Below, one piece after another: positions 23,544-29,039 of a stretch of DNA of 64,000 nt. The position numbers and the translations under genes were made by a program. Within the stretch, counting starts at the first letter, position 1; the number at the start of each line of letters is the position of its first letter. The stretch is from a virus, in the IMG/VR virus record IMGVR_UViG_3300048833_000111, positions 1-64,000 of that record; one strand, written 5' to 3'. The notes beneath the pieces are model-generated. The model made no database searches. It worked only from the letters and a program-made list of their open reading frames with translations, and was not told the DNA's origin.

Positions 23544-23907
23544 TGGAGATGTGCGGACTCGAACCGCAGTCTTTAATACTCCTATATATAATACTTTATA
23601 CAGCTTATTCTCCAACACTTATTTAAAGACTCTGTTGGGACAGTCTATGAAATCAAATCGCTAGTTAGCTTATGCAGCTATTGCAACCTGTCTTGTTCCC
23701 CAAGATAAATCTTGAGAAGGAGATACAGATTTTCTCTCTCCTTTGTGTACTACCATCATTGGAGTACTAAATGTGTAGTTTATATCAACTACTTCTTGTG
23801 CATCATTATCAATGTTTCCATTTATTCAATTCACCTTAGTTTTAACCAGTTATCTCTCTGGGCTGAATATTATATAAGTCTTACCAAATCAAATCCAGGT
23901 CATCCCC
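23544..23907 (-). ncRNA. ssrA: tmRNA with an unusually long tag reading frame
   Basis: The minus strand starts GGGGATGACCTGGATTTGAT, close to the bacterial tmRNA 5' end, and ends TGCGGTTCGAGTCCGCA-CATCTCC; acceptor GGGGATG/CATCTCC pairs in 7 positions. The segment before the T arm (TAAGCTGTATAAAG...AAAGACT) matches the tRNA-like domain, with helix AGTCTTTA/TAAAGACT. Total length 364 nt, like E. coli. A frame ending GCA ATA GCT GCA TAA (23670) gives a tag ending RQVAIAA. It is open back to at least GCA at 23799-23801, implying about 43 residues. Hairpins normally formed after the tag seem to be inside it. Confidence 0.85.
23670..23801 (-). CDS. Probable tmRNA tag-encoding segment (up to about 43 aa)
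   Basis: The only frame through this tmRNA that ends in a hydrophobic-Ala-Ala tail reads AQEVVDINY at its start and RQVAIAA-stop at its end. The other two frames stop at TAG or TGA within about 20 bases of the likely resume site and do not end in AA. The true resume codon cannot be fixed by eye; the frame is open from a TGA about 27 bases further upstream. Typical tags have 8-35 residues. Confidence 0.5.
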   Translation of the reverse strand, partial: AQEVVDINYTFSTPMMVVHKGERKSVSPSQDLSWGTRQVAIAA

Positions 23908-24850: not shown

Positions 24851-26566
24851 TTATATTACTACTCTTTTCACTTTTTCTAAGTGATGGGCAGCATTGAATT
24901 CAGATGTAGCAATATCATCAAACATTGCATATCCGTATCCATAGTAATATCTTACCTTATCTCCTGCAATACAGTTAGTACCATATCCAGCTAAGTCAAC
25001 TGAATATACATAAGGATTGCCTGATTTCTCAACATACCCCATATAGCTCTTATAGCTATTGCCAATATTACATTCATTATCAGATAAGATAAATACTCTA
25101 GTATATTTATTACCAGAAGCATTTGCAGTATTCCAAGCTGATGCTAAACTAGTTCCTCCCATATTTGCACTACTTAAGTTTTTAGCTAAAGTAAATACAT
25201 CAACATTGGGATTATACTGCACATATTTAGCAGAAGAACCAAATACAATTATATCTGCATTGGTAGCTATTGCTATTGTAGCTGCAACAAGTGCTGCTTT
25301 ATGTGCGCATAATACACCAATCTTACCATTAGGTAGTCTAATAGGAGTATGCATAGAACCAGATTGGTCCAAGAATATACAGTTATTTCCTGGTAGCATT
25401 TCTGCTAAATTAGGAATAGCTTCAATATATCCTTTAGCTAATGCCTGTGATATTTGTCTAGAGTAAGGAGTATTAAACTCAGAGAGCATAATATCATTTG
25501 CCAAATCTAGTTGATATGGCATTATTTTTCCTTCTCTAATCAATCTTGGATTGGAAACTAATTCACACACCTTACTGACAGTATCTGGGTCTGGGTTATT
25601 GATAAGAATGTTTCTTAAATTTCTCAAACAAGCCAGTATACCCAGTTTGTTTGTATCAAGAAGTTCTTTCCAATTATCAGATTTTGCCTGCTTTAAGACT
25701 TGCTCTGCTTCATCTTTATCCAACTTACCTTCCTTAACAGCTTTTGCTACAATTTGTCCTGCTTCTCCTTGGTTAACTTCCCAAGTATTTGCTGACACAT
25801 TGTAACCTCTCATTATTGCATCTAAAGTATAGACATCTTTATCCTCATATTTAACTATAGCACCTGATTTTTCTCCAGATGGGTGTGTTAAATTGATTAC
25901 ATCTATAAGTTTAGATTTGTATTTCAATAATGAATAAGTGTCGATAGATTCCAAAGCATCTTTGAAACCTTTCTTCATAGCATTTGTAAGCTTTGTACCA
26001 CTTACATTTACTTCACTACTTGTTTCTCCAGTCCTGTGATTTACCACAGTAGTAGTTTTATATTCCCCATTAAGGGCAACAAAACCTGCAATAATTTCAG
26101 ACATATCATCAGGTCTGAATATTACTCCACCTTTTTCTTTTTTCTTATCCCATAGACCATAAAATCTCTTTCCAAACTCTTGTCCTGAAAGATGTGGGGC
26201 AATAAATACAGATGCTGCGTGAGAGATAGTTCTCATACCTTCTCCTAAGCATCTAGAATAAACTATACATTGACAAGTTAAGTACAGATTTTCTGTAGCA
26301 CATTCCCTAATTAGACTTTCTAGTTCTACTAGTGTCTGTTTATCAGTTCTGTAATACTGGTTCTGTAATTTTAATGTGTTAAGCATAGTTAACAATTTCA
26401 ACCATTTATCTTGTGTATGGGCAGGTAATCCCTGTCTATTTACAGTATCTGGTTTTGGAATAGCTCTTGAGGCTACTAAGTTTTCTTTAGGTTTCTTCTG
26501 ACCTATAACTCCTGCTAATTTTGAGTTTGTTTTTGACATATTCAGTTCAATTTTATATGTTGACAA
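24851..26566 (-). CDS. Ro60/Rsr-like TROVE-domain RNA-binding protein
   Basis: The first 370 residues form the HEAT-like TROVE ring (DKWLKLLTMLNTLKLQNQYY, then RTDKQ; CIVYSRCLGEGMRTISHAAS, FRPDDMSEIIAGFVAL). The C-terminal third is a vWA domain with an intact MIDAS DxSxS: FLDQSGSM (D400, S402, S404), then GGTSLASAW and LSDNE. This is the architecture of Ro60, which binds misfolded RNAs and Y RNAs. At 571 aa it is the full usual length. Bacterial homologues act with tRNA-like YrlA RNAs and nucleases. It is flanked by hairpins and lies next to the MoxR/vWA genes and the tRNA/tmRNA array, suggesting RNA quality control or handling of the structured RNAs here. Confidence 0.9.
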   Translation of the reverse strand: MSTYKIELNMSKTNSKLAGVIGQKKPKENLVASRAIPKPDTVNRQGLPAHTQDKWLKLLTMLNTLKLQNQYYRTDKQTLVELESLIRECATENLYLTCQCIVYSRCLGEGMRTISHAASVFIAPHLSGQEFGKRFYGLWDKKKEKGGVIFRPDDMSEIIAGFVALNGEYKTTTVVNHRTGETSSEVNVSGTKLTNAMKKGFKDALESIDTYSLLKYKSKLIDVINLTHPSGEKSGAIVKYEDKDVYTLDAIMRGYNVSANTWEVNQGEAGQIVAKAVKEGKLDKDEAEQVLKQAKSDNWKELLDTNKLGILACLRNLRNILINNPDPDTVSKVCELVSNPRLIREGKIMPYQLDLANDIMLSEFNTPYSRQISQALAKGYIEAIPNLAEMLPGNNCIFLDQSGSMHTPIRLPNGKIGVLCAHKAALVAATIAIATNADIIVFGSSAKYVQYNPNVDVFTLAKNLSSANMGGTSLASAWNTANASGNKYTRVFILSDNECNIGNSYKSYMGYVEKSGNPYVYSVDLAGYGTNCIAGDKVRYYYGYGYAMFDDIATSEFNAAHHLEKVKRVVI

Positions 26567-27887: not shown

Positions 27888-29039
27888 TTAATAATATAAA
27901 TCTCTATCACTTGCAGCTACTAGAGGTCTATCACCTTTTTGCATCCTAGCTAAAGCCTTTGCAACTTGTTCGTCTCTAGATATCTGTTGTGGATTCCTAT
28001 ACTCAACTTGTGGTTCATTAGAAAAATTAATATTGTTATTAACCTTTCTAAATATATTAGACCTATCCTCTGTAGATAAATCCTGACATACCATATTAAG
28101 AATTCTTTTGCTGGTATAACCAGCATTGATTAAAATAGATATATCTTCTACATTTCTGGTAGATAGATAATTACCTATTTCTTCAAAAGCATCTCTCATA
28201 GCTTCAACCCAAGGATAATAGTTACCCATAAGTTGTTTCTCCAATTGAATATGATATCCAATATGGTGTCTACAAAATCTAAATCTATCCATTAAAGCCA
28301 TATCTTGGAAATCCCTACCTGAATAATCAGTAGAGCCTTTCCCCCAAGTATTTCCACACATAACTAAATAAAAATCCTTGTGCTTTTTAGCTGTTGGATT
28401 ATCATCTCTATGTGGAATAGATATAAAGTTAGAATTATCTGCAATACCATTAAAGAATAGTGCCATATCTCCTGACATAGCATCATATTCATCTACTAAG
28501 AATAGACCACCATTTTCATATGCATTCAAGAAAGAAGTCTGTAAGTATACCTCAGATTTAGGTTGTTTATAACCTAATAAATCATGTACACTAGAGTCTC
28601 TAGAACAAGAATATTTATAAAAAGGTATGTTCATTCTTTTAGCTATTTCAGCTACCATATAAGTTTTACCAGTTCCTGCTGGTCCAACTAACATAGTTTT
28701 CTTTTGTATTACAAGGGATTTTACAACATCTTCCATTTTAGGATGGTCCATATGTTGTATTTCAATTTCAGAGGTATTGGGGAGAACTATTGTAGTTCTA
28801 CCTTTTACTATCTCTTCCATTATTTTATCCCGCATATTTCTTGCAGCATATTTTGCTGCATCTTTATGCTCTTTCAATATATTTTGAAGCTCTAGTCTCC
28901 ATTCATCTGAAGATTTAGATACATCAACATCAAAAGCAAGAATACTATCTTTCAATTTATCTTGAAAGATAGTATCTATTTCCTTTGCCAATCTATCTAA
29001 ATCAAATTCAGGTACTGCCTGTGATTTGATTTCATCCAT
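27888..29039 (-). CDS. MoxR/CbbQ-type AAA+ ATPase
   Basis: Walker A MLVGPAGTGKTYMVAEIA (about residues 115-132), then FYKYSCSRDSSVHDLLGYK, Walker B GLFLVDEYDAMSGDM, sensor 1 FYLVMCGNTWGKGS and an arginine finger region MALMDRFRFCRHH. This is the MoxR class of AAA+ remodelling ATPases. The N-terminal 100 residues are helical and may recognise the partner. It starts the module that continues with the vWA-like, acidic and Ro60 genes. Role inferred: ATP-driven remodelling of a protein or RNP complex. Confidence 0.85.
   Translation of the reverse strand: MDEIKSQAVPEFDLDRLAKEIDTIFQDKLKDSILAFDVDVSKSSDEWRLELQNILKEHKDAAKYAARNMRDKIMEEIVKGRTTIVLPNTSEIEIQHMDHPKMEDVVKSLVIQKKTMLVGPAGTGKTYMVAEIAKRMNIPFYKYSCSRDSSVHDLLGYKQPKSEVYLQTSFLNAYENGGLFLVDEYDAMSGDMALFFNGIADNSNFISIPHRDDNPTAKKHKDFYLVMCGNTWGKGSTDYSGRDFQDMALMDRFRFCRHHIGYHIQLEKQLMGNYYPWVEAMRDAFEEIGNYLSTRNVEDISILINAGYTSKRILNMVCQDLSTEDRSNIFRKVNNNINFSNEPQVEYRNPQQISRDEQVAKALARMQKGDRPLVAASDRDLYY

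What the first reader, a model, noticed from the sequence alone, without database searches (positions are those of the whole stretch)
23544..23907. Phage tmRNA with a tag of about 43 residues ending AIAA
Ends, tRNA-like domain and length are those of tmRNA. The only frame ending in a ClpXP-type -AIAA tail is open for at least 43 codons before the stop at 23670, while usual tags are 8-35 residues. The hairpins that normally follow the tag appear to be within the coding part. A phage could append a functional peptide to stalled products, or fuse tagging with a peptide cargo.
Basis: partly seen in the sequence, partly recalled or inferred. Interest (0 to 1): 0.88.

Follow-up and report, generated by a model that had tools for sequence, protein, structure and literature searches.

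The report
Phage tmRNA with unusually long tag
A crAss-like phage of flavobacteria carries its own tmRNA, the RNA that rescues stuck ribosomes, and it encodes a 49-residue tag instead of the usual ten or so; its relatives in several distantly related flavobacterial phages share a helix inside the tag that selection has kept, so these viruses may redirect the fate of unfinished proteins.

Summary
Window 23907-23544 (minus strand) is a one-piece tmRNA: Rfam RF00023 60.6 bits (cut-off 47), acceptor stem with G3-U70, T-arm, PK1 hairpin, one H-type pseudoknot after the stop. ARAGORN misses it.

The larger finding lies in the relatives. A search by the PK1 RNA sequence alone gave 22 distinct tag-coding sequences; 21 share an internal module, Q[VI]xANMxxVxx[IL][IL]. 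In all I found 26 distinct module-bearing tags of 24-50 residues, in Crassvirales (including cultured phi14:2), Fipvunavirus, a 110-118 kb group, and cultured Callevirus phi38:1. The module is under protein-level selection (pN/pS 0.39; permuted mean 0.93, 0 of 300), is predicted helical, and was found only in tmRNA tags in 16 phage genomes searched. Annotation software drops or trims these tags.

The window's own tag is the outlier: no detectable module, and unusually structured coding RNA. I infer a two-part tag, a docking helix plus a C-terminal degron; partner and fate are unknown. Peptide cargo is not shown.

The parts
23544..23907 (-). tmRNA gene (ssrA), one-piece form
   Evidence: RF00023 60.6 bits, full model; acceptor stem with G3-U70 and T-stem
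23833..23863 (-). PK1 element; S1 CCAG/CUGG, near-invariant CAGAGAGAUAACUG..UAAAACUAAGGUGA
   Evidence: Conserved in all relatives; S1 closing pair covaries C-G, A-U, U-A, G-C
23817..23819 (-). resume codon GGA (Gly), after AUAAAU
   Evidence: Same position (83-90 nt from the 5' end) and context in homologues
23673..23819 (-). tag reading frame, 49 codons, ending -AIAA
   Evidence: Translation without stop
23670..23672 (-). tag stop codon UAA
23697..23792 (-). four hairpins inside the tag-coding RNA
   Evidence: RNA fold, z -3.15 for the coding part, 0 of 200 shuffles
23612..23646 (-). H-type pseudoknot after the stop (PK4-like)
   Evidence: Read from sequence: AGACU/AGUCU and CCAACA/UGUUGG

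Best explanation
It is a working one-piece phage tmRNA that uses the host's SmpB, is charged with alanine, rescues stalled ribosomes during infection and adds a very long tag (Ala plus 49 residues) to unfinished chains. It belongs to a family of flavobacterial-phage tmRNAs whose tags have two parts: an internal amphipathic helix (Q[VI]xANMxxVxx[IL][IL]) set between linkers of variable length, and a C-terminal ClpXP-type tail (mostly -xAA). Most likely the helix is a docking site for a protein partner (a protease such as Lon, a Clp adaptor or another host factor), so that tagged products are handled differently from those with the host tag. In the window's phage the frame and tail are kept, but the helix has been replaced by an unrelated stretch whose RNA carries strong hairpins, perhaps standing in for pseudoknots missing after the stop. 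Shown: tmRNA identity, frame, length, family, protein-level selection on the module in relatives, no SmpB or ClpP gene in the phages. Inferred: expression, tagging, docking role, partner.
For: RF00023 and tRNA-like domain. 49-codon frame. 21 of 22 distinct tag-coding sequences found by PK1 alone carry the module; more in terminase relatives, phi14:2 and phi38:1/Calle. pN/pS 0.39 in frame, 0.83 and 1.35 out of frame; permutation 0.93 +/- 0.25, 0 of 300. Module only in tmRNA tags in 16 genomes. AlphaFold2 helix 5-21, block pLDDT 86. Variable spacing on both sides (2-14 and 8-31 residues). No SmpB or ClpP.
Against: The window's tag is not found by a profile built without it, so the docking idea rests on relatives. 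phi38:1 ends -VGV and phi14:2 -MVA, not -AA. No partner identified. Hydrophobic moment only mildly above shuffles (0.34 vs 0.24 +/- 0.12). Host tags not compared. No expression data.
Confidence: 0.5

Rival explanations
1. RNA-first: the long frame is a by-product. The RNA needs structure between the resume codon and the 3' domain; in the window the hairpins lie before the stop, the frame stayed open, and the extra residues do nothing beyond the tail.
For: Window coding RNA z -3.15 with tandem hairpins; only one pseudoknot after the stop; no module.
Against: In relatives the module is kept at the amino-acid level with free synonymous change, and 8 of 12 coding parts tested are not unusually structured. 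Tag length and post-stop length are not significantly correlated (rho -0.25, p 0.24).
Confidence: 0.2
2. Functional peptide or cargo: the tag is not mainly for degradation; it gives the tagged protein a new activity or location.
For: Conserved internal module; tails of phi38:1 (-VGV) and phi14:2 (-MVA) depart from -AA.
Against: All complete tags found through PK1 end in -AA; the conserved part is about 13 residues, with linkers of free length; no match to any protein family or solved structure.
Confidence: 0.17
3. Decayed gene: the window's tmRNA has lost its function, and the tag drifts.
For: Module absent; no independent homologue of this tag.
Against: tRNA-like domain, G3-U70, PK1, resume context, open frame and -AIAA tail are all intact.
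Confidence: 0.05
4. The true tag is short and read in another frame (for example ETLIMMHKK).
For: Such a frame exists after the resume region.
Against: That frame is not conserved and has no degron-like end in homologues, whereas the long frame is open in all.
Confidence: 0.02

Closest known systems
Standard one-piece bacterial tmRNA (RF00023)
   Same: tRNA-like domain, G3-U70, PK1, resume codon, tag frame, pseudoknot after the stop
   Different: Tag of 49 residues (most frequent length 10, PMC11915505); family tags carry a conserved internal helix; the exact PK1 pattern is absent from 84,980 species genomes
tmRNAs of Callevirus (phi38:1, Calle) and of Flavobacterium phages FpV4/Fpv1
   Same: Same PK1, same resume position, long tags
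   Different: They carry the QxxANM module, which the window lacks; 30 and 35 residues
Long Lon-directed ssrA tags of Mollicutes (Mesoplasma florum)
   Same: Lengthened tag; precedent for a tag changed to suit another protease (PMC9382460)
   Different: No ClpXP-type -AA tail there (NYAFA); no shared sequence noted
E. coli ssrA tag with SspB docking site (AANDENY-ALAA)
   Same: Works like: docking element upstream of a ClpX-type tail
   Different: Docking site there is about 7 residues and not a helix module; no SspB relationship tested
Permuted tmRNAs of Bacteroidota phages cr50_1 and MA9V-3
   Same: Phage-borne, tags begin GN
   Different: Two-piece form, tags of 13 and 17 residues, no module

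Membership tests
tmRNA (RF00023) | Covariance-model score above the curated cut-off | tested here: met
   60.6 bits against 47
tmRNA (RF00023) | Alanine tRNA-like domain with G3-U70 and T-arm | tested here: met
   7-bp acceptor stem, G3-U70, 5-bp T-stem; the same in every relative whose 3' end could be placed
tmRNA (RF00023) | PK1 upstream of the resume codon | tested here: met
   S1 hairpin with covarying closing pair; the second pseudoknot stem was not identified
tmRNA (RF00023) | Open tag frame from a fixed resume codon to a stop | tested here: met
   49 codons, position as in relatives
tmRNA (RF00023) | Works with SmpB and tags stalled chains | not testable with these tools
   No SmpB in 14 phages; host SmpB would have to serve
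Phage tmRNAs with the internal QxxANM tag module (defined here) | Near-invariant PK1 sequence and resume position | tested here: met
Phage tmRNAs with the internal QxxANM tag module (defined here) | Internal module Q[VI]xANMxxVxx[IL][IL] | tested here: not met
   Hold-out profile does not find the window tag; the window belongs to the RNA family but lacks the tag module
Permuted (two-piece) tmRNA (RF04321) | 3' half precedes 5' half | tested here: not met
   Halves in standard order; permuted model 25.2 bits against 47, truncated

The most novel reading that the evidence does not exclude
Distantly related flavobacterial phages share a portable docking helix inside their tmRNA tags that binds a specific host or phage factor, so that products of trans-translation during infection meet a different fate from that given by the host tag; some lineages, such as the window's, have swapped the module for another sequence.
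Probability: 0.4. Interest if true: 0.85.

Novelty: new variant of a known kind. Interest (0 to 1): 0.68.

Why it matters
Why phages carry tmRNA is open; proposals so far are upkeep of the ribosomes or recycling of host proteins (PMC9004378). A conserved element inside the tag, shared by distantly related phages and kept at the protein level, says that what is added to the chain matters to the phage, not only ribosome release. It can be tested in cultured phages (phi14:2, phi38:1, FpV4) and in public proteomes. It also shows that routine annotation hides such tags: ARAGORN reports no tmRNA for FpV4 and trims phi14:2 to GSSVQKLAMVA and phi38:1 to AQIEANMEAVNAILNLEVAVGV.

Tried and rejected
Short tag in another frame: rejected by conservation of the long frame. 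Origin of the module from a phage protein: a six-frame profile search of 16 phage genomes found it only in tmRNA tags; no Pfam, PHROGs or PDB match. Phage-encoded SmpB or ClpP: none in 14 phages. A co-occurring adaptor gene: comparison of 19 phage genomes gave phrog_15656 as best candidate (8 of 12 module phages, 0 of 7 without; often within 1-3 kb of the tmRNA, present beside both tmRNAs where there are two), but four module phages lack it and it also occurs in phi4:1 and Bacteroides DAC19, where RF00023 gave no convincing hit; a weak lead only. Trade-off of tag length against post-stop length: not significant. The idea that the window's tag carries a recognisable module: rejected by the hold-out profile; DNA similarity past the first five codons p 0.075. 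Prior description: ten paper searches found none of the module; most subscription papers are not covered.

Full report
What is there. The window lies in a 96-kb virus record whose large terminase is 51% identical to that of Flavobacterium phages Fpv1/FpV4 and related to that of crAss-like phages. Just upstream of an array of 24 tRNA genes, on the same strand, is a tmRNA at 23907-23544. The Rfam model matches over its full length at 60.6 bits, cut-off 47. ARAGORN does not report it. The acceptor stem is fully paired with the alanine determinant G3-U70, the T-stem is intact, and CCA is not encoded. The permuted model stays below its cut-off, so this is the one-piece form.

The frame. From the resume codon GGA (23819) the frame runs 49 codons to UAA (23672-23670): GNIDNDAQEVVDINYTFSTPMMVVHKGERKSVSPSQDLSWGTRQVAIAA. 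The start is set by comparison: in the homologues the codon lies 83-90 nt from the 5' end, follows the same PK1 element, and is GGA/GGC (Gly) or GAC (Asp) with A at -4. Local base composition gives about a 0.9% chance of 49 open codons. The most frequent tag length in the tmRNA database is 10 residues (PMC11915505).

The family. Searching IMG/VR for the PK1 sequence alone gave 22 distinct tag-coding sequences. Each one that is not cut by a contig end is open and ends in -AA, and 21 share an internal stretch that reads, for example, NAQVQANMNVVHNILNGG, QIEANMSVVHNIL or QIDANMAKVRSLI. A looser pattern and terminase relatives added five more, including a 50-residue tag in L087. The cultured crAss-like Cellulophaga phage phi14:2 has GNDTDNTQLKANMTVVHNILNGSDALIGSSVQKLAMVA in an unannotated tmRNA that scores 46.0 bits, one below the cut-off. 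The cultured phages phi38:1, phi40:1 and Calle, placed in another family (Pervagoviridae), have GNNTNAVNAQIEANMEAVNAILNLEVAVGV. Twenty-nine Flavobacterium phage records encode a tag of this kind; that of FpV4 is GNTNNSVVSLEDNAQVEANMNMAFSLIREDVAVAA. The PK1 pattern has no match in genomes of 84,980 bacterial and archaeal species, so this RNA form looks phage-specific.

Selection. In the 14-codon module, codons of invariant residues vary synonymously: CAA/CAG, GCT/GCA/GCC, AAC/AAT, GTA/GTT, and leucine between TTA, TTG and CTT. pN/pS is 0.39 in the tag frame, 0.83 and 1.35 in the other two. Permuting nucleotide columns (15 diverse rows, observed 0.43) gives 0.93 +/- 0.25 and never reaches the observed value in 300 trials. 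So in the relatives the peptide is selected, not just the RNA. The number of residues before the module varies from 2 to 14 and after it from 8 to 31. AlphaFold2 on the alignment predicts a helix over residues 5-21 (block pLDDT 86) and a low-confidence remainder. The hydrophobic positions 2, 6, 9 and 13 would lie on one face of a helix; the mean hydrophobic moment, 0.34 against 0.24 +/- 0.12 for shuffles, is suggestive only.

The window as outlier. A profile built without the window does not find the window's tag. The first five codons, the AQ, the M.VVH and the -AIAA tail resemble relatives, but DNA similarity past the first five codons is not significant (p 0.075). Its coding RNA folds better than shuffles (z -3.15), as do those of L041 (-4.6), L016 (-2.8) and L008 (-2.4), while the other eight tested are unremarkable. 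One H-type pseudoknot follows the stop. The only other copy of this tag is on a contig that looks like the same phage, so selection on its own residues cannot be tested.

How it likely works. By established tmRNA biology, an alanine-charged tmRNA with SmpB enters a stalled ribosome, the resume codon is read, and the tag is appended. The phages have no SmpB or ClpP gene, so host factors would serve. The mostly -AA tails suggest delivery to ClpXP. The internal helix, conserved but at variable distance from both ends, looks like a docking site for another protein. Precedents are SspB docking next to the ClpX site in E. coli and the longer, Lon-directed tag of Mesoplasma florum (PMC9382460). [quoted passage not shown] Partner and fate here are inferred.

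Known or new. Phage tmRNAs are known: 402 phage genomes in one survey (PMC9004378), 79 unique phage sequences in the tmRNA database (PMC11915505), one counted in Calle (PMC8776804). I found no description of a conserved internal tag module, within an open-access library. Other Bacteroidota phages (cr50_1, MA9V-3) have permuted tmRNAs with short tags lacking it. Annotation software may explain the gap: ARAGORN misses FpV4 and L016 and trims phi14:2 and L010 to their last residues.

Limits. Host tags were not compared, no expression data were examined, and relatedness among sequences is kept but not modelled in the permutation test.

Noticed in passing
window 24851-26566 (-) and 27888-29039 (-): A Ro60-like protein (TROVE and vWA domains) and a MoxR-like AAA ATPase lie beside the tmRNA and tRNA array. 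The TROVE gene lies about 2 kb upstream of the tmRNA in the window and in its four closest relatives (G001-G004), but was not found in the other module phages. No Y-RNA-like Rfam match.
   Followed up: partly
L008 and L041 (both on IMGVR_UViG_3300025853_000041, 105 kb): One phage contig carries two tmRNAs with different module-bearing tags, each with a phrog_15656 gene about 0.5-1 kb downstream.
   Followed up: partly
L097 2448-2919 (phi14:2); L001 2509-2923 (FpV4); L223 (phi38:1): tmRNA genes left unannotated in GenBank records of cultured phages; phi14:2 scores 46.0 bits, just under the Rfam cut-off of 47.
   Followed up: yes
L229 1140-1635 (cr50_1); L228 1139-1497 (Chryseobacterium phage MA9V-3): ARAGORN calls permuted tmRNAs with short tags (GNNFVTDYTAIGA, GNVIDINKYVAKLEVAA) in phages of Bacteroidota.
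   Followed up: no
L230 (Tunturiibacter phage Tunturi_4): A permuted tmRNA with a predicted 33-residue tag lies next to a gene annotated as an RF-1-domain release factor.
   Followed up: no
L097 611-1321 (phi14:2 gp006) and relatives: phrog_15656, of unknown function, tends to lie near module tmRNAs; also in Cellulophaga phages phi4:1 and phi38:1.
   Followed up: partly
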